Part shown: piece after piece, positions 7,542-64,000 of the stretch
Layout: every line of letters begins with the position of its first letter
How positions within the stretch are numbered: the stretch's first letter is position 1
Origin: Mansonella perstans
Taxonomy: Eukaryota > Nematoda > Chromadorea > Rhabditida > Onchocercidae
DNA length: 64,000 nucleotides
Assembly: GCA_037074765.1 (NCBI GenBank)
Contig: JBAMDO010000080.1
Span: 1-64,000, forward strand
Direction: 5' to 3'
Made by a program: the position numbers and the translations under genes
The notes under the pieces: generated by a model
The model's database searches: none
What the model was told of the DNA's origin: nothing
The model's input: the letters and a program-made list of their open reading frames with translations, nothing else

Positions 7542-10500
7542 ATGAAAAAGGTGAAATTGGAGAATTCGGAAAAATTAACATCAATGGCTGGAACAAAATC
7601 ACCTCGTAATTTATCCCCGGCTAGTGGTAATTTGGAAGTGCAACGAATGCAAGTAGATATTGATTCAATGGCTCGTCAATCAGCTATGATGATTAAGCTT
7701 ACTGATGAAAGCATTGCCGCCCTTAAAATAGCTCAAAAGACTCGACAGCCAATACGACTAAAAATTGATAAACAGGTTTGTCATTTTGTACTATATTTTC
7801 ATGCTTTGATTAATAAAATTATATTGTATTTGGCAAAAAAATTTGGCTACCTTATTGCTAAATTTCAAAATTAGAATAAAAATTTCGCAAAAATGACTTC
7901 AGCCCAGGAAAAATGATTTCGTTTTGATAAATATATCATCGGGAAATTAAAATTTATTGATTGCGATATGGAAATTGCTGTACTTTCCATATTGTGTTAA
8001 AAGCCATAAAGCCTAACTAGTGGTAGGCTCTGATCCTGAAATGACCATTTATTTGTTGGTGGGATTCTGAGAAAAAAAATTCTGCTTGATATTTTCCGTC
8101 CTTTCATTTTCCAGCTTATGTTAGCATTCGACAATCTTTTGGAAATTATGAAGGATATATTTTGCTTTATATTATTGTGATCAGCACTTTATTCTTCAGA
8201 TCTCTTAAATTGATACTTGCATATTCTAAGTGCAATCTGATGTTTCCTATCCTTTCGGTTTCTATTCGAGATGAATTATTGCGCTTTTTTAATTCAAACC
8301 TACACCATTGGAATTTCACTCTACTTCCCACTGAATTAAAATATCTTCAAGAAAAATGAAAAGCTGTAAAAATTGCATTTATATAATTTCCTTTCTTTGA
8401 CAGATCATTACTTCATAGTTCATCGATGTGAAAATATTACGATCGTACATTATAGTTCAATTAAATTCAATTAGTTTGTTCAGTTTTCCTTCTCTAACTA
8501 ACAGTAAGAATTTAGTAGTACCGGAAAAAGTAGAGTTATGTAAGAAATAAAATTTTTCCATGTTTTTTCAAATTAATTCTTGCTACAGGGAGGTGCCATT
8601 GAAATTGGTTGCAGTGGACAGACAACTAAATTCCGTTTCGTTATCCAGGAAGTATCAGGTGCACCAGCGGATGCAGTTTCTTATGATTGCCAAAAGAGAT
8701 ACCGAACTGTGGCTACTTTTCACTCCAAAATACAGGCAAGGAATACTTCTTTTTTTTATCTTAGGACTTTTTCTTGTTTTTTGTATTTTTCAATAATGTT
8801 CGAGGGTATACCGTCTAAATGATAATGCTGCCAGATTATGAAATTTAATTGCTTCTGGATATTTTGATAACAGTGATGCATTTTCAGGTGCAAACTACGG
8901 CAAAGGCACTTGCAGAAACGCGTGATAAGCTTCTTGAAGAAGAAAAAAAGAAGCAAATGAAGGATTCATCAAGGTTATTTTTTTATTAAATGTTTTGTTA
9001 AGTGAAAATGAACCAATAGTGATTCATCTGAAAATTAACTGAAATATTCTGTCATATTTTACAGCATGATACCTTGAATCAGGCAGATCGTTTGAAAAGT
9101 GATAAGGTATCTCTGTTAAAAAAATTAGGCTGATTTCTAACAGGTGTTGTTAAATCTGTAATAATTTTTTAGACATAAACGTGAGCAACACTCCGTAACT
9201 GTGAAACGTGCAACGAATCCATTGGCAATCGGTGCGCAACGTCCAAGTTCTTCATCCTCTGCTCGATCTCATCATTCTGATTCCTCAAGTAAAAATGCCG
9301 CATCCAGAGTAAGAATTAGACAATTTACAAAGTTACAAGCGCTTTAATAGACCATCAACTTTAGAATTGCATGCATGTTACATTATGGAGAATGGAATGA
9401 AGACTGTTTTCAAAGTAAAAGAAAACAACTATAGTAGTTTTGATAGCTGAGTATTTCTTTGTTCAGGTCACGCTTTTTAGTAATTTCAGAAATAGATTTC
9501 CTGCTTATGATTCTCTGACTGTTAGGATATATTGTAATCAACTGAGGATAAAGTTTACGGTATCTCAATAAAGAATTTGTATAATTTTATGTTTTTAAAT
9601 TAACGATAATGCTATTTTAGAGCGTAAGTAATCAGCAGCAGCAGCATATTTCTTCGAATGCTTCAGCCGGTATGTTCTATTTTGAAATTTAAAATTTCCC
9701 TTTCTAGCGGTTGTTTTTAATTTTAAAGGTTTGCTCGTACTTTTTCAATTCATCATAAAAGGAACAACGATTCATCATTTTACTAAATTAACTAATATTG
9801 AGAAGACTTAAAGCAGTGAAGTTAAGCTTTCCTTCTGATAAGTGCATTGGCTGTTAATAACCAAAGTAGTCATATGCCTAATTTAAATGCCTGTTGAAGC
9901 TGGTGCACGATCGTTTGTCCGCGCAGAACTTTCAAGACGACCACTGAGAAAGCGTGTGATACATTTGGTTGTTCTTGGTCGATTCTCTTCAGCAAGTGAA
10001 ATTATTACTCAGATACGGAAAGATTCTTTGAGTGAAGAGATTGCTCAAGAGGATACTGATCGAATACACGAAATTATCGATGCAGTAATTTGTTATGTTA
10101 TAATATACTTTATTTCTATGACATATTTAGTTGGTGTATCTGTGGAGAAAGTTTTCGATTTTCCGGTAAATTTTTTCCGATGACACGAGATATGGTAATG
10201 TTCTGTTCGGTAAATTGCTAAAAAACATCCTTCTGTAGTCCGGGAGGAGGCTAAAGTATTGCTAGAAATTCGGTCAAAGCTGAGTAGTAAAAAGCGATGC
10301 TAACATTCTTGATCTGTTCATTCTTTATTCACTTATTTTATAAACACTCATATCTTTTTGCGCTACATTTTATCTTGATCGATACATGCATCATTGTTTT
10401 ATAATGAATCAACGGAAAATAGATTAAAGACATTTGAGAGTTTCCGTGGATTATTCAAAATTAATTCAAATTTTAATTTGTTTTTCTTAGTTCCAGTGAT

Positions 10501-50764: not shown

Positions 50765-50836
50765 CACTTAGTTAACTTTTTTTTTATGTTGACAAATCAG
50801 AATCATTTAGTTAACTTTTTTATCTTGACAAATCAG
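50765..50836. repeat. Direct duplication of about 36 bp
   Basis: TTAGTTAACTTTTTT...TTGACAAATCAGA occurs twice side by side, at 50768-50801 and 50807-50837. The copies differ in the length of the T run. Confidence 0.8.
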
Positions 50837-50934
50837 ACGGCCAATTTCTGCCAAAAAAATTCCATATTCATAAATATATGTCTTTCCTCATTCTATTTTA
50901 TAATGACTGGCTACTGCAAATGAAACATAATTTT

Positions 50935-50986
50935 GTTGAATAAATAAAAATATATAGATAGCCATTATATATTTTATTTATTCAAC
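50935..50986. repeat. Inverted repeat, 21-bp stem
   Basis: GTTGAATAAATAAAA is followed by AT-rich sequence and a short loop (GATAGCCAT), then the reverse complement ending TTTATTTATTCAAC. There is one extra A in the left arm. It could be a small hairpin or the fused ends of an old element. Confidence 0.75.
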
Positions 50987-51454
50987 AACTACACTGTAGT
51001 TCAATGATGTTTAACAAAAATAAAAATTAATCGTTACGACTAGCATTTAACCAAACAAAATTTTGCAAATGAGAATTTTCAGCATTGCGAATTTATCAAA
51101 CATATAATGGCTATCTTCAATTTGAAAAAAACCTCCAAAAACAGACACAATATATGATGAATTTAAACCGATTTAGTTTAATGCTATTTTTTAATGCTAT
51201 TTTATTCACCGTTATTGAGAAATTAAAATATTCCCCTCGATATTTTTCATATTTCTTTCTAACCATTTATACTGTTTTGACAACAATTTGTCGCTATTGT
51301 TCTTTAGTCTAACTAAAGAGTTTCTCTAGTAAGTTCTTTAGTCTGACTAATTCAACAGCCTTGTCGTGATTTTTGTGTGAGAAGTCAACTCTTAGCCAAT
51401 ATTCTTCAATGATTTGATCACGAATTGTTGTGTTAGGTTGAGTTGCGGAAACAC

Positions 51455-51476
51455 CTCAAACTTGGGTAATTAAACC
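51455..51476 (-). other. Exact SL1 spliced-leader 22-mer in LTR (unit 1)
   Basis: The minus strand reads GGTTTAATTACCC then AAGTTTGAG, identical to nematode SL1 over all 22 bases as I know it. It is followed by GTG. It belongs to a 60-bp tandem unit shared with 51515-51536. Confidence 0.95.
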
Positions 51477-51514
51477 GTTGTGTTGAGTTGAGCTGCGTTG
51501 AATTGTGTTCGCAC

Positions 51515-51536
51515 CTCAAACTTGGGTAATTAAACC
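51515..51536 (-). other. Exact SL1 spliced-leader 22-mer in LTR (unit 2)
   Basis: This is a second exact SL1 match, 60 bases from the first, preceded on the minus strand by AATAAA and followed by GTG. The spacer between the units is rich in CAACTCAA-like words. Confidence 0.95.
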
Positions 51537-52106
51537 TTTATTAGAATAATTGGATAACGCGAGATTAATATAACAATTATGTAGAACGTGCAATTAATGG
51601 TAACATTAACATATAATAAAGCGGTAATGATGAGGAGAATAGAACCAGTAGCCGTGGATGTGAACAAATCCCAAAAATGCTCCTTTTGGGATGATTGAAA
51701 GTTTATATACTGAGTATTGTAGGCGGAGAAAACTTGTATTAATGAGTTGAGTTATAAGAAACTAAAGATCATAAAAAATGAAATCCTTTGTACTGATAAG
51801 CTTGGTTGAGACAGTACAATATATTGCATGTAAGCGTAAGCATCAAACAAAGGATTTCGACACAGTTACAGAATGGTTGTGGTTAATAAGTTGTTAATTG
51901 CAGCTGCTTCTTTGTTAGTTTATGGTAGGAAGGAGTTTAACAGCTTACAATTGGAACAAAGAGATTAAACATTACAAATTACTTAGGTGGCTCATAAAAG
52001 CCGTTAATAGAATCAGATTAAAACCCTATTGGGAATTTCGCGTTATGAATTTCGCGACAAGCCTAGTTCAATCCAAACTGAACACCGGATCCAAAGTACT
52101 AGAGCT

Positions 52107-52242
52107 TGCTGAAGTTTTGAAATGATTAAACAGCTATGAAATAATAACGATAGAAAATATAGAATCATCTCACAAAATGTGCAACAGTATATTTTCCTGT
52201 TATCATTCAAATCTTATGGCTGCTATATTTTCGCTGTAAATC
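52107..52242 (-). pseudogene. Decayed copy of ARMT1 last exon (downstream)
   Basis: On the minus strand this aligns with the end of the working exon: CAGCCATAAG, then codons for TGKYTVAHFVR and a stop, against TGEYAVAQFVR in the real exon. The Trp codon is TGA here. It directly abuts the working stop codon at 52246 and continues into a 3' flank that matches the flank of the upstream decayed copy (52474-52518). Confidence 0.8.
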
Positions 52243-52245
52243 AAA

Positions 52246-55200
52246 TCATCTCACAAATTGTGCAACAGCATATTCTCCCGTTGACATCCAACCCTTATGG
52301 CTGCCATATTTCGTCTGTAAATTATTGATCACTTTTGAACTTAATCCTGCTATCGTCTCTGCTTTGACAGTACGAAGCGCCAAAATTGGTGCCGGACAGA
52401 AACCTCGTAATGCTACCTGAAATTACATGATTGAAACAATTTAGAATTCACGCAGGAAATGATTTGCCAGTTTGTTGAAGTTCTGAACTGATTAAAGAAC
52501 TGTATGATAGAAAAGAGGGAATCATTTTACAGACTGTGTGACAAATATGATCTCTTGTTATTATACGAATCTTATTGCTGTCAGATTTCCCTATTGACTT
52601 CTAACATTACTGACTTCTGTCAACCTTCCTAAGCTTAATCTTCCCGACAAGTCGTTTTGTAAAATGAACAAAGAAATTATCAGAATTACTTTAAACGGAG
52701 TATCCAGTGGCCATTCGAGATCACTAACCAATTTCCTGTAATTGTAATCACCTTTGAAAATAATTAGTGATGATTGCGATAATTCACGATGAAGATCTGG
52801 AGCCTTTTCAGCCATTAAATAATATGGATATGGAAGAGTCCAGAAATAATGAGTTCGAAAAACAAATTCATTCTAAAAAAAAATTGATGCATTGAAAATA
52901 CCGAACAGTTTGTATTAATTTTAAAAAAAAGGCTAAATTCAATAAAAATCTCTCGCAGTCCCTCACTTTTTTAAAATCAGAATTTAGATTTGCTCTTTCT
53001 TCTTCAGTGTATTCTAAGCAAAAGTTGAAGCAACATCGCTAATTTGCTCTATATTTTTTTTATTAAGGAAGCACTAATTGAGTGCTTGAGTTGACAAAGG
53101 AAAATCAACAAATTTAAATTTCAATTTTCAATTCAAATTTTTCAAAGAAGAAGCATACGTCTGATAATCTTTGTGAGCATTTGACACCAAAATTTCTCAA
53201 TGAGGAATTCGAATTAGCAATTAGCATTTCGATTGCCCAGTTGAAATCTTTACCGGTAACGTCAGACACAAACCATGGCATACTCTGTAAACATAAACTT
53301 ATATATATATATATATATCCCAAGCAATTGCGACAAAAGGAATAAAACCAAGGAAAAACTAATTTAATTGCTTAATTAGACAAACCAACGATATTTTTAT
53401 TAAGTCAGAAATTTATAAACTTCACAATTTCCGTACTTGATTTCCTAACACATTTGAAACGAAAAAATAAAACAAGAAACAAATCAACAATGCGTAATTT
53501 CGCAAAAAAAGAAATCTGAATTTTTAAATTAGAGATTTTATGAAAGCACAAACCTTTCCGTGAAAAACAACCTTTTTTACGCCATACTTGCTAATTAGTA
53601 ATTCCGCAAGCGCTAAATCGGTAAGAAGTTCGAGACCAGAGTTATCAAGAATCATATCTACATGGTCCACCTTACCATTCCTGAAGCTCATAATTTTTTA
53701 TTGAGAAGAAAAATGGCCAAAGCAACATGGTGAAAAAAGATAATTTTCAGAAATTACAATTTAATAATACGAAACGCATATTATATTTACGAATTAATAT
53801 AAATTAATAATATAAAAAGCTTTCGTAACTTTATGAATCACCTTATAATCGCATCAACTTCATCAATCTGATTACATAAGATTTTATCGGTCAAATGGTT
53901 AAGCATTTCCAAAAGAGGAAAAGCATTAATGCGTTCGCCAGATGAAAGAGACAAGTCACATGTATTTCCCCATAAACACAACTAGATAAAAAATATTTTA
54001 GTTTGAAAATTAAGACATTAAATTTCAATTTTTCATGGTGCTAATGCCAAAGTTATACTTGGAAAAACTCGGCAATCACGTCCTGGTCAATTTTTGCTGT
54101 TTCCGATGCTACTTCTTCTAAGCGCTTTAGAAGCATACTAATCGTTTCAATGCTGAAATTGGCCACATATTTTATAGAAAACTTTACAACTTCCTACAAT
54201 CAATTCTGGGATTAATTAAAAGATGATAATTCCATAACGCATTCAACTATTTACTTATCAAAACTCAATAAAGGTAAGACTGCACAATACAAAAAATCTT
54301 TTATGACATCTAGAAAAAATAAAACATAATACTCACCAATCAATAAACGAGCCTTGTTTTTGTGATGCAAATGGATCGAATTCATTTAGGCTTATTGTTT
54401 TAAAAAAGAAACTCATTACTTGTCTATATAAAAAACACTCCGCAAACAACCAATCACAACGATACCAAGTCACTTGTTCTGCACCTTTCTAAAATGTCAT
54501 TTATGAGCAATTATTCCAATACAAATAAAAGATAAGAACATTTTACTACAGGATAAAGTCTACTAAAGAAATATTGTTTTTTAGAGCCTGCAGAGAAAAT
54601 TTACAGCTCACATTTCAGCAATGATCCTTGTAAAAGAATACTATTAATTAAACAAAAAATATTTATGATCATATTAAACAACCTCCATTCGCAATTTTCT
54701 TAGTTCTTCATTCCAAATATCAACTTTTTCTCCACGATCATCAAGATCTCGTAACGGTTTATCGGTGCAGACAAGGTAAGATAACTCAGATAGTTGACTG
54801 AGAACCGATTTAATATCTTTTTCCCCTTCCTGAAATAAACATATACTGTAATCGAAATTTGAAATAATCAAACTAAAATTTCGATAAACTATATAAAATT
54901 TACAAAAATTTAAGTGTAAAGTAATCGCACTCCAATATCATTATGATAGGAACGTGTAGGATATATGATACATGTGGAATATATAGAAAATCCAGAAAAA
55001 AAAACATAAAAAAAAAAAACTTATAAATACCCGACAATTCAGCGAGTAATTTTTACACATAACAAAAAAAAAAAATTAATAAACCTCGCCGTGAATAGCA
55101 ATGTGAGCATGTCGATATCGATGCACTTGGTCAACAATTTTACCTAATATTTTTGGCCAGCGATCACGAACAGTTAAAAATGCGAATGTACTGAAAACAC

Positions 55201-55375
55201 AAACTTTTTATTATCATGTCAATTTCAGAAATTAAGCATAAGTAAGAAACTTTCTCAAATATAAAGTATTATAATTTGGGAAAACATTTACAGGATTAAA
55301 AAATAATGATCATAGAAAAATATACCCTTCTTTGCTGCCAGTTAAAGCAGGAGGGATAACTGGAATTGGTGGCAT
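52246..55375 (-). CDS. ARMT1: ARMT1/DUF89 damage-control phosphatase
   Basis: DUF89 family III proteins are metal-dependent phosphatases that remove damaged sugar phosphates such as fructose-1-phosphate; human ARMT1 was also reported as a PCNA carboxyl methyltransferase. Ten exons: 55375-55326, 55190-55085, 54829-54683, 54488-54337, 54193-54059, 53981-53842, 53680-53554, 53284-53159, 52872-52690, 52416-52246; about 445 aa. Family landmarks are GTFAFLTVRDRWPKIL at the start, YRCDWLFAECFLYR, LCLWGNTCDLSLS, ILDNSGLEL (metal-site DN), MPWFVSDVTGKDFNW, FKGDYNYRKL and the C-terminal TGEYAVAQF. Exons 4 and 5 are out of phase by one base: exon 4 ends GATTG before GTGAGT, and one more G would restore SFIDW-EVVKF. 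The ATG lies only ~28 bases from a duplication edge and lacks an obvious acceptor before it. Confidence 0.88.
52474..52660 (-). pseudogene. Decayed copy of ARMT1 last exon (within last intron)
   Basis: This lies between ARMT1 exons 9 and 10. Minus-strand blocks CAGCAATAAGA and GTCACACAGTCTGTAAAATGA match the working exon at lower identity. Its 3' flank (52474-52518) matches that of the other decayed copy at 52110-52160. It has several stops and is the older duplicate. Confidence 0.65.
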
Positions 55376-55402
55376 CGTAGAGAATTACCGGAAAATAAGC
55401 CG

Positions 55403-60350
<4,948 letters not shown>

Positions 60351-61044: not shown

Positions 61045-62860
61045 ATGGTGGACATTGTTAGGCTACAATTAGGTGAGAAAGTTGATCAGTGGACTGTTAT
61101 TGAAAAAGTTGGCGAAGGAGCTTTTGGATCAGTGTATAAGGTTATTATGAAAATTTATTGCTAATTATATCAATTCGATAATATTTCTTTTTTTTCAATG
61201 CATATTTCATACATTTGCAATTTTTTTTTGACTTCTAAATTCCTCATTATTTAAGAATTTTATTTTATAGGTATCAAGAGGAAAAGAAATTTTTGCATTG
61301 AAACAGAAAGTTTAAAGGAGAAAGTTAAAGTAAGTTCTTAAACTTTAGAAAAAAGACATGATAGATTTTTGGTGACATTTTTATGTATCTTTCTATGAAC
61401 AGAATTCTGATACATTTCTAAACTTTTCAGCATATCATCATCATGTTCAAGTTATATTTGCAAATAGTGGGATATCCTATTCATTTCTTACCCATTCTTC
61501 ACAGTCACTGTCCATCACTGTACCCACTCTTCATGGTCATTGTCTACCACTATACCCACTCTTCATGGTCACTGTCTATCATTGGAACCACTCTTGAGGG
61601 TCACTATCTGTCACTGTACCCACTCTTCATGGTCACTGTCTATCACTGTACCCATTCTTCATAGTCACTGTCTATCATTGGAACCACTCTTGAGGGTCAC
61701 TATCTGTCACTGTACCCACTCTTCATGGTCACTGTCTATCACTGTACCCACTCTTCATGGTCACTGCCTATCACTGTATCCACTCTTCAGGTCACTATCT
61801 ATCATTGCCATACGAGTTACTGCTAGATCACAGAGATAACACTTTGACTTCTCTCTTTTTTTGTTAGCATCAATGATTATAGTTGTTGAAAATGGAAGTT
61901 TATGTGCTTAAATTAGCGAATGGACGAAAAAGTAAACATTTTTGTACTTGCGAAGATACAGGCATCTACAAAAAATGCTTGTATTTGGTGATGACACTTC
62001 TTGGACCTTGTTTGCAGGTACATTTATAGAGTTTTAATGGGATTTCCATTATTGATATCTCACTGATAGAAATTGATTATGGCCTTTCATTAAAATGTTA
62101 GATGACCTCGTCGGACTCATGGTAGATTTTAAGGCCAATTGGCTAATAGTCAACTAGTAACTAGTAGCCAGCAAACAATATATTAACAACTCTACTTCAA
62201 CTTCTATTAATTAATTGCTCGTATTAATTGCTCCAACTCAACTGATGTTAATTGTTCACAACAAATAAAATATTCTTTACGGTAAAGGAATCCTTAATAT
62301 TCTTAACTTATCTGGTAGCTTCGATATCTGACATTCTCATTTGAGGATATAAGAAAAGAGTTACCCGGGCAGAAATTTTCTATGGGCTGTGCGCTGTCAG
62401 TTGGGATACAGTGTTTGGAAGCAATCGAAGAGCTTCACGCCATTGGATTCTTGCATCGGTCATCTGTTCTGTACTTTTGAAAAGCCTAATCTTAATTTTC
62501 GTAATAAGTTTACTCTATAATTAGTCTCATCATATAACGAATACATCATAATTCGTTTTCATAACCTTATTTTTTATTTTGAAGGAATTTGTTTGATTTT
62601 TTTTTAAGAAGCAGATATTTTATGATGATTTATTTAAACAGGTAAGAGGTTATGAAAAAACGATCATGATGTCGAGTTATCACTATCACATAAAGAATTT
62701 CCCATTACTCAGAACCAGTTAATATTTTAGTGATATTAAACCAAGTAATTACGCAACGGGTCGTGGAAAGCTTGACGAATTACGACGAATTTACATATTG
62801 GACTTTGGGATGTGCCGAAGTTATCTGGATGAAAATGGACGGTTCCGACCTCCAAGAAGG
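61045..62860 (+). CDS. Tau-tubulin-kinase-like (CK1 superfamily) kinase, 5' part
   Basis: The TTBK-like branch of the CK1 superfamily is expanded in nematodes; I cannot name the ortholog. Exons: 61045-61140, 61271-61329, 61883-62017, 62319-62458, 62731-62860, about 187 aa. Present are the Gly-rich loop (VGEGAFGSVYK), the ALKTES lysine (VAIK site), MTLLGPCLQ, a helix F/E region FSMGCALSVGIQCLEAIEELH, the catalytic loop HRDIKPSNYATG and DFGMCRSYLDENG. In exon 2 the AAA at 61301-61303 needs one more A to read ALKTESLKEKVK; as given it stops after ALKQKV. After exon 5 the activation segment and C-lobe are missing, and 96 bases on the sequence becomes a copy of the AsnRS 3' region. The gene is therefore truncated, or interrupted with its remainder beyond the window. 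Intron 2 carries a minisatellite. Confidence 0.8.
61488..61808. repeat. 32-bp minisatellite, about 10 copies
   Basis: The unit is CTTCATGGTCACTGTCTATC followed by ACTGTACCCACT, repeated about ten times with variants. Two units carrying GGAACCACTCTTGAGGG lie about 97 bases apart, giving a three-unit higher order. It sits in kinase intron 2. The repeat-encoded open frames (His/Cys/Ser-rich) are not genes. Confidence 0.93.
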
Positions 62861-62955: not shown

Positions 62956-63435
62956 GAAAACTTCCCAAACTTTACGGATACAGTTCTGAAATAATTGCTG
63001 CAAAATATCCGATACGACAACTATGGAAAGTTTTTTTTTTTCGAAATCCAAAAACAAGTGTCAGAAACTGCTTGCACTCTTATCGAAGTAGTAAATAACA
63101 GTATACTTATTTGTCTCGTATTACGATGTGAATAACTTTCTAATGGAATTTCGAGGTAAATAGGCACCATGTAACTACCATATTGTTGCATCTTATTGCG
63201 TCAAGAAAATATTCTCATCAAATTCATGCGAAAATGTAAACGCACAGATAAAGATTCTTCTTCGCTATACTTTTGTATTTTTCGCTATTTCTAATAAATG
63301 TTGATAAGTTTTATAGAATCACACAATGGAGCAATTGTATATATATATTTTTTTTAATTATGGAAGAAGCAAAAAAGAGTAAACAGAACAAGCAACAAAC
63401 AAAAAGAACAAAAGTGTTAAAAAAGTCAATTTCTG

Positions 63436-63612
63436 CAATAAATTAGTCTTTCTTTAAGTGTAACAACATTTCCCAACTATTAAAGATATAAAAACAATAA
63501 ATTAGTCTTTCTTTAAGTGTAACAACATTTCCCAACTATTAAAGATATAAAAACAATAAATTAGTCTTTCTTTAAGTGTAACAACATTTCCCAACTATTA
63601 AAGATATAAAAA
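63436..63612. repeat. 59-bp tandem triplication in copy B
   Basis: CAATAAATTAGTCTTTCTTT starts at 63436, 63495 and 63554, and each unit runs through CCCAACTATTAAAGATATAAA. Copy A has only one unit (near 55880), with TTGG in place of TTAG, so the expansion came after the duplication. Confidence 0.95.
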
Positions 63613-63692
63613 AAGCATCAATTTTAGCGCATTACATCAACAGTCTTAACAATTGATTAAATCAAGAGAAATACATTTTCAGATGCATGTAT

Positions 63693-63896
<204 letters not shown>

Positions 63897-64000
63897 CTAA
63901 AAAATACAAATAAATTATTAAAAAGAAAACAAAAAATGAAGGAAAAAACTCTAGAAAATTCCTTTTACTGAAATGTGGATAATAAACTTTTGAGAAACAT

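What the first reader, a model, noticed from the sequence alone, without database searches (positions are those of the whole stretch)
51455..51536. Tandem SL1 spliced-leader sequences inside a mobile element
Two exact copies of the nematode SL1 22-mer lie 60 bp apart on the minus strand of an LTR-like element. The sister element at 58316 has the pair with 2 and 1 changes (58352-58373, 58402-58423). SL1 normally occurs in SL RNA genes, often within 5S rRNA clusters, or at mRNA 5' ends after trans-splicing. Here it sits ~165 nt downstream of a TATATAAA box, so an element transcript would carry SL1 internally. Three of the four copies are followed by GTG, as if the GAG|GT donor context were kept. 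Possible origins: re-integrated trans-spliced element RNA, with repeated rounds giving tandem leaders; capture of an SL RNA gene piece; or mimicry that lets element RNA behave as, or compete with, SL RNA. I know of no described nematode LTR of this kind, but I cannot search.
Basis: partly seen in the sequence, partly recalled or inferred. Interest (0 to 1): 0.88.

Follow-up and report, generated by a model that had tools for sequence, protein, structure and literature searches.

The report
Retrotransposons carrying the host's spliced leader
In this nematode genome many LTR retrotransposon copies carry the worm's exact 22-base spliced leader right after their poly(A) signal, and one copy has the start of a host ribosomal-protein mRNA joined at that leader, so the elements likely reverse-transcribe trans-spliced RNAs and likely use the leader as the matching end at which the DNA copy changes template.

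Summary
Two exact SL1 22-mers lie at 51455-51476 and 51515-51536 (minus strand), two decayed ones at 58352-58423. They sit in two solo LTRs with perfect 5-bp target duplications, of an LTR family that brackets Pao peptidase domains elsewhere. The genome holds 266 exact SL1 copies, 68 in SL1 RNA gene context. Of 123 units read, 108 have SL1 directly after AATAAA. SL1 is the main place where LTRs change partner: of 7021 LTR pairs, 349 share U3+R but not U5 and 31 the reverse, against 50 that part between U3 and R. Most telling, one provirus with a 5-bp duplication has U3-AATAAA-SL1 joined to an intron-less ribosomal protein L6 mRNA start, exactly at that gene's 3' splice site. So SL1 is likely written in by reverse transcription of trans-spliced RNA and likely acts as the template-switch repeat. 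The SL1-Pao link and SL addition as its origin are in print for Brugia malayi (PMC7181701). LTR position, junction swapping, arrays and host-mRNA capture I did not find in print. No RNA data were available.

The parts
51362..52059 (-). solo LTR A1 (698 bp), TGTCGCGA...TCACGACA on the minus strand
   Evidence: terminal TGTCG/CGACA, identical 5-bp flanks; 95.7% to another LTR over 702 nt
51357..51361 (.). target-site duplication AGCCT, left
52060..52064 (.). target-site duplication AGCCT, right
51702..51709 (-). TATATAAA box of A1
51537..51542 (-). AATAAA directly before the outer SL1
51515..51536 (-). outer SL1, exact
51477..51514 (-). 38-nt CAA-rich spacer of the 60-nt unit
51455..51476 (-). 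inner SL1, exact
51362..51454 (-). U5 type A (GTGTTTCCGCAACTC...)
58316..58944 (-). solo LTR A2 (629 bp)
58311..58315 (.). target-site duplication CCTAC, left
58945..58949 (.). target-site duplication CCTAC, right
58587..58594 (-). TATATAAA box of A2
58425..58430 (-). AATAAA before the outer SL1 of A2
58402..58423 (-). outer SL1, 1 mismatch
58352..58373 (-). inner SL1, 2 mismatches
58316..58351 (-). U5 type B (ATTCGACTGTGCCACG...), unrelated to U5 type A although U3 and R of A1 and A2 are 88-90% identical

Best explanation
The SL1 copies are built into Pao-type LTRs directly after the poly(A) signal and were likely written there by reverse transcription of RNAs that had received SL1 by trans-splicing, with SL1 then likely serving as the matching end, a stand-in for the R repeat, at which the cDNA changes template. 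Proposed steps: (1) the element is transcribed from its TATA box and SL1 is trans-spliced to its 5' end (inferred; no RNA seen). (2) The 3' end of element RNA is cleaved shortly after AATAAA, in or near the encoded SL1 (inferred from position). (3) Strong-stop cDNA therefore ends in SL1 and anneals to the SL1 at the 3' end of the same or another element's RNA, giving U3-AATAAA-SL1-U5 with a fresh, exact SL1 (inferred; it predicts the swapping seen). (4) Because host mRNAs can bear the same SL1, a host mRNA can be joined the same way; one such copy, with ribosomal protein L6, is present (shown). Tandem 50/60-nt units would arise when the transfer lands on the wrong SL1 of an array (inferred).
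For: Position: 108 of 123 units have AATAAA 0-1 nt before the first SL1, 2 more are SL1 RNA genes. Swapping: 119 units, 7021 pairs, fixed segments: U3+R shared but U5 not, 349 pairs (55 units); U5 shared but neither U3 nor R, 31 pairs (27 units); all shared 250; R never unlike where U3 is shared and all three segments are clear (0 pairs). Examples, U3/R/U5 percent, shuffled 23-43: L003/L045 32/43/82, L060/L054 40/45/92, window A1/A2 90/88/38, L136/L152 96/91/18. Chimera C35:5235-9200: TSD ACCAC at both ends, U3s 97.5% identical over 361 nt; after U3-AATAAA-SL1 comes RPL6 (PF03868, E 4.6e-10), 98% to the gene at C539, exon 1 joined to exon 2 without the intron, starting exactly after the gene's TTTTTGTAG, then reverse transcriptase (PF00078). 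Refreshing: outer SL1 exact in 54 of 85 and 32 of 42, in the latter 0.014 changes per site against 0.055 in the adjacent 22 nt; inner SL1 exact in 32 of the 100 listed (105 found), with variants shared by 16 and 12 copies. In 31 arrays of the batch plus window, outer alone exact in 17, an inner alone in 3 (with L086 moved by eye). New junctions whose older sequence could be read follow AG: RPL6, L136 (GAAG), SL1+TTTGAG (CCCAAG), the 21-nt arrays (AATAAAG).
Against: No RNA evidence: trans-splicing of these elements, transcription start and cleavage site are all unseen. 50 pairs (36 units) share R+U5 but not U3, so breaks at the U3/R edge, as in ordinary R-mediated transfer, also occur or are mimicked by length changes; 113 pairs share R alone; 4268 of 7021 pairs had a segment of middling identity and were not classed; a looser alignment setting did not separate the classes. 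Of 19 hand-picked pairs only 9 were clean. Pairs are not independent. One host-mRNA capture was recognised among 123 units. The two LTRs of one element (C4, TSD AGCGC: L004 and L006) differ by the TTTGAG insertion, so that mark can come from slippage after insertion. The L136 junction could be a deletion at short homology, and the 21-nt arrays a duplication between G's. Some outer SL1 variants are shared too (one by 3 copies). The family with the longest open frames (C61, C333, C309; 2393-2452 aa) has only a decayed SL1-like stretch at the same place. How the first transfer worked before any SL1 was in the LTR is unexplained.
Confidence: 0.65

Rival explanations
1. SL1 entered one ancestral Pao LTR long ago and is kept exact by selection because it works in place, for example as a promoter or initiator element, a splice acceptor, or a poly(A)-site element; swapping of U5s is ordinary recombination between co-packaged RNAs.
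For: SL1 is at one fixed place after AATAAA in LTRs whose U3 and R are unrelated. 50 pairs share R+U5 on unlike U3, as ordinary R transfer would give. The leader is reported to be part of the SL RNA gene promoter in Ascaris (recalled, no call).
Against: Inner copies are not kept exact (32 of 100 listed); the family with the longest open frames has lost exact SL1; selection does not explain the RPL6 mRNA joined exactly at its 3' splice site.
Confidence: 0.16
2. SL1 was acquired a few times by chance retro-integration of trans-spliced RNA and is now a passive passenger; it plays no part in replication.
For: This is close to the reading in print for Brugia malayi (PMC7181701, passages). Inner copies drift.
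Against: A passenger does not explain why most classed partner changes fall at SL1 or why outer copies stay closer to SL1 than the neighbouring R end does to itself.
Confidence: 0.13
3. DNA-level recombination or assembly misjoining at a repeated 22-mer made the mosaics.
For: A 22-bp exact repeat can trap assembly graphs (general knowledge); I had no reads.
Against: Window A1 and A2 carry different U5 types, each with a perfect TSD. The RPL6 gene reads TTTTTGTAG, not SL1, at that point, so the join needs RNA, and the chimera's ends share ACCAC.
Confidence: 0.04
4. The unit is a piece of an SL1 RNA gene captured by the element, or a mimic that donates SL1.
For: GAG|GTG context is kept in three of four window copies.
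Against: No SL RNA match at E up to 1; true genes read SL1|GTAATTG, LTR copies go on in many different sequences.
Confidence: 0.02

Closest known systems
SL1-flanked PAO retrotransposons of Brugia malayi (PMC7181701, passages seen)
   Same: SL1 22-mers away from SL1 RNA genes, 60 of 120 within 1 kb of PAO elements, occasionally one at each end on the same strand; the authors infer leaders added to expressed elements and integrated with them.
   Different: The passages seen do not place SL1 inside the LTR after AATAAA, nor report tandem arrays, junction swapping, a fresher outer copy, or a host mRNA joined at SL1.
DinoSL relicts in dinoflagellate retrogenes (PMC6050394 and PMC12014239, passages seen)
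   Same: Leader sequence fixed in the genome by reverse transcription of trans-spliced RNA; more 5' relicts are reported to carry fewer changes (PMC6050394), as here.
   Different: There the carriers are host genes; here an LTR element whose own terminal repeat contains the leader.
Cer1 of C. elegans (PMC3315495, passages seen)
   Same: A nematode LTR element with an SL1 trans-splice site.
   Different: Gypsy/Ty3 type; SL1 was found on the spliced 2.4-kb mRNA and not on the 8-kb RNA.
Host-gene capture by retroviruses and LTR elements (general knowledge)
   Same: A template switch between element RNA and host mRNA yields a provirus with host exons.
   Different: Here the 5' junction is the shared spliced leader.

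Membership tests
BEL/Pao LTR retrotransposon | Pao peptidase domain (PF05380) between the LTRs | tested here: met
   same-strand SL1 pairs 5.9-6.3 kb apart bracket PF05380 at C114, C131, C40. The window solo LTRs have no internal part and are assigned through U3/R clustering with C114
BEL/Pao LTR retrotransposon | Reverse transcriptase | tested here: met
   PF00078, E 4.6e-8, in the C35 piece, the only piece tried
BEL/Pao LTR retrotransposon | LTRs with TG...CA ends and short target duplication | tested here: met
   5-bp duplications at window A1, A2, C2, C5, the C4 element and the C35 element; L003 gave none
BEL/Pao LTR retrotransposon | Integrase, gag | not tested
   -
SL1 RNA gene (RF00198) | Full-length SL RNA as modelled by Rfam | tested here: not met
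   no match in window 50800-59400 at E up to 1; controls match
Trans-spliced retrotransposon with SL1 as R repeat | Element RNA begins with SL1 | not testable with these tools
   No RNA data
Trans-spliced retrotransposon with SL1 as R repeat | SL1 in both LTRs, just after the poly(A) signal | tested here: met
   Paired copies L060/L061, L087/L088 (with Pao between); 108 of 123 units after AATAAA; the cleavage site itself is inferred
Trans-spliced retrotransposon with SL1 as R repeat | Template changes fall at SL1 | tested here: inconclusive
   380 of 430 classed pairs with one break have it between R and U5, 50 between U3 and R; the RPL6 chimera breaks at SL1; pairs are not independent

The most novel reading that the evidence does not exclude
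These Pao elements have made the host's spliced leader their R repeat: trans-splicing supplies one copy at the RNA 5' end, the LTR encodes the other at the poly(A) site, and strand transfer runs through SL1. The leader renews itself each cycle, lets unrelated families trade U5s, and opens the element to capture any SL1-bearing host mRNA.
Probability: 0.48. Interest if true: 0.88.

Novelty: new variant of a known kind. Interest (0 to 1): 0.72.

Why it matters
If true, a retrotransposon uses an RNA-processing step of its host to build the terminal redundancy it needs for copying, a role not given to the spliced leader in the papers that my searches showed. It would make SL1-bearing host mRNAs potential partners for template switching, a route to retrogenes and gene capture, and would explain scattered SL1 copies in such genomes. 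It also warns that genomic SL1 copies can confuse SL1-based transcript mapping.

Tried and rejected
SL RNA gene piece: rejected (against controls). Host gene behind SL1 in L049: rejected, it is a repeated LTR sequence. L084 and L057 look like truncated or rearranged LTRs, not captures (by eye); other units were only looked over by eye for host genes. An automatic search for older sequence before each junction gave many artefacts from decayed SL1s and CAA-rich spacers; only L136, TTTGAG and AATAAAG were kept. Automatic clustering of U5 was blurred by flanking DNA; 19 hand-picked pairs followed (9 clean, 2 alike throughout, 2 sharing only R, 6 unclear), then all pairs of 119 units: a loose gap setting did not separate the classes, a stricter one did in part. 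A regex count missed some decayed outer copies and was replaced by a plain mismatch count, which gave 18 outer-only and 2 inner-only; it puts L086 on the wrong side because its outermost copy is too decayed, so I give 17 and 3. Rows dropped: L002, L005, L007 (same places as L001, L004, L006), L009-L038 (SL1 RNA cluster), L115 from the units; L098, L101, L086 and one too short. The second batch, L118-L157, came from lists anchored on exact outer SL1 and is left out of the outer/inner comparison. About 50 of the 266 exact SL1 copies were not read. The species was not determined; nematode is inferred from its SL1 RNA genes.

Full report
WHAT IS THERE. Two exact SL1 22-mers at 51455-51476 and 51515-51536 and two decayed ones at 58352-58373 and 58402-58423, all on the minus strand; 4 matches against 0 in 100 shuffles. 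They lie in two solo LTRs: A1 51362-52059, flanked by AGCCT on both sides, and A2 58316-58944, flanked by CCTAC. Both run TGTCGCGA...CGACA on the minus strand, with TATATAAA, about 160 nt, AATAAA, SL1, spacer, SL1, U5. No Rfam family matches 50800-59400 at E up to 1.

THE GENOME. G000 has 75.7 Mb in 539 contigs. Exact SL1: 266 (154 forward, 112 reverse), reversed control 0. SL1 RNA gene context, SL1|GTAATTGAATG: 68 places, 67 on C518 (mostly 307 bp apart) and 1 on C191 beside a 5S gene; the 50 that one search scored are all on C518. A further isolated SL1 RNA gene is at C181:393356 (L098). I read the surroundings of all 100 places that one search listed (of 266), plus 40 stretches chosen from the lists: 123 units with 149 exact copies. 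In 108 of 123 the first SL1 follows AATAAA by 0-1 nt; 2 are SL1 RNA genes; of the other 13, most have a signal one letter off, judged by eye.

THE CARRIER. Same-strand SL1 pairs 5.9-6.3 kb apart bracket PF05380 Pao domains at C114 (41228/34944), C131 (47742/53621) and C40 (506165/500159). Target duplications are 5 bp (L003 gave none). U3 and R of both window LTRs cluster with those of C114.

SL1 AS THE SWITCH POINT. In 119 units I compared U3 (-300..-180), R (-120..-1) and U5 (first 36 nt after the last SL1) for all 7021 pairs; 'shared' means 78% or more, 'unlike' means within 95% of shuffled pairs. U3+R shared, U5 unlike: 349 pairs, 55 units. U5 shared, U3 and R unlike: 31 pairs, 27 units. 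R+U5 shared, U3 unlike: 50 pairs, 36 units. R alone shared: 113. All shared: 250. All unlike: 1960. U3 shared with R unlike: 0. The other 4268 had a middling segment. Thus among classed pairs with one break, 380 of 430 have it at SL1, and 50 at the U3/R edge, where ordinary R-mediated transfer or length changes would put it. Pairs are not independent, and a looser setting blurred the classes. Examples in U3/R/U5 percent: L003/L045 32/43/82, L078/L045 37/40/87, L113/L079 41/45/90, L060/L054 40/45/92; window A1/A2 90/88/38, L133/L099 69/79/35, L060/L104 65/61/36, L136/L152 96/91/18; shuffled 23-43. Ten of the 19 pairs tried there were not of this clean kind. If the donor RNA began at the TATA-derived start, R should travel with U5; mostly it stays with U3, which suggests that the donor RNA began at SL1 (inference).

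A HOST mRNA JOINED AT SL1. At C35 a 5' U3-AATAAA-SL1 is followed by GTGCAAAACAATG and a reading frame of 87 aa whose start is the N-terminus of ribosomal protein L6 (PF03868, E 4.6e-10; eL6 chains in the PDB). The gene lies at C539 (98% over 239 nt). There the same stretch follows TTTTTAATTTTTGTAG, and an intron separates GGGG from CCAAAATATCTG; the C35 copy has SL1 exactly at that acceptor and the two exons joined. After CTGAAAGAA it continues as reverse transcriptase (PF00078, E 4.6e-8), with a Pao hit at 7655-8128 and a 3' LTR whose SL1 is followed by a common U5. The ends at 9200 and 5235 share ACCAC, and the two U3s are 97.5% identical over 361 nt. I read this as one integration of a cDNA in which a trans-spliced and cis-spliced host mRNA was switched to element RNA, with SL1 at the 5' junction.

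OUTER COPIES ARE FRESH, INNER ONES DRIFT. With patterns anchored on R ends and 3 mismatches allowed: class 1, 54 of 85 outer SL1 exact, 0.019 changes per site against 0.031 in the 18 nt beside it; class 0, 32 of 42, 0.014 against 0.055. Inner copies: 32 of the 100 listed (105 found) exact, 0.045 against 0.027 in their flank, with variants shared by 16 and 12 copies; outer variants are shared by at most 3. In the batch (81 units plus the two window LTRs; 31 arrays): only the outer exact 17, only an inner 3, both 10, neither 1 (L086 moved by eye). Spacings are mostly 60 (41) and 50 (17), arrays have up to 10 units.

MARKS OF SPLICE ACCEPTORS. L136 has SL1|AATATTGGC where its sisters read AAG|AATATTGGC. 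SL1 followed by an extra TTTGAG occurs in L006, L050, L064, L129, L157 and inside L097 and L109, as expected from CCCAAG|TTTGAG. L063 and L138 have SL1s at 21-nt steps, as expected from AATAAAG|GTTTAATT. AG makes up 3.1% of dinucleotides in these U5s. Against: L004 and L006 are the two LTRs of one element (AGCGC) and differ by TTTGAG, so slippage can make it.

A LINEAGE WITHOUT IT. C61, C333 and C309 have the longest open frames at Pao hits (2452, 2413, 2393 aa). The one LTR read in each has AATAAAG then GGTTCTATTACCCAA or GGTTCAATTACCCAAG at the same place, a decayed or partial SL1, so exact SL1 is not needed by every lineage that looks intact.

MECHANISM. Shown: the position, the swaps, the chimera, the gradient. 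Inferred: that element RNA is trans-spliced, that cleavage falls at SL1, that first-strand transfer uses SL1. I put 0.65 on leader-by-reverse-transcription with SL1 as the switch point, and 0.48 on the strong form with SL1 as the regular R repeat; both were lowered slightly after the all-pairs count showed 50 pairs broken at the U3/R edge.

LITERATURE. Passages seen: PMC7181701 reports SL1 near PAO elements in Brugia malayi and infers leader addition followed by integration; PMC3315495 SL1 on a Cer1 mRNA; PMC6050394 and PMC12014239 leader relicts in dinoflagellate retrogenes; PMC4558846 a solo LTR whose transcript competes with a spliced leader for an acceptor. The other papers appeared only in listings and were not opened. 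Searches listed no title or abstract with SL1 as R repeat or strand-transfer site; two returned none. The library lacks most subscription journals, so older work may exist.

Noticed in passing
window 55404-56328 and 62957-64000: A near-identical repeat (98-99.6%) about 7.55-7.67 kb apart, the second copy holding three 59-bp tandem units; solo LTR A2 lies between them.
   Followed up: no
window 61489-61804: About ten tandem 32-bp units with a 96-bp higher-order period.
   Followed up: no
L098, C181:393356: An isolated SL1 RNA gene (86 bits) away from the C518 cluster, reading SL1|ATAATTG instead of SL1|GTAATTG.
   Followed up: partly
L101, C191:69446: A single SL1 RNA gene next to a 5S rRNA gene on the same strand, away from the C518 array.
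   Followed up: partly
L158, L159, L160 (C61, C333, C309): Pao family with long open frames whose LTR has only a decayed SL1-like stretch after AATAAA.
   Followed up: partly
window 59659-60135: A 158-aa minus-strand frame containing [14 protein letters not shown], which looks like an aminoacyl-tRNA synthetase exon (from memory, not searched).
   Followed up: no
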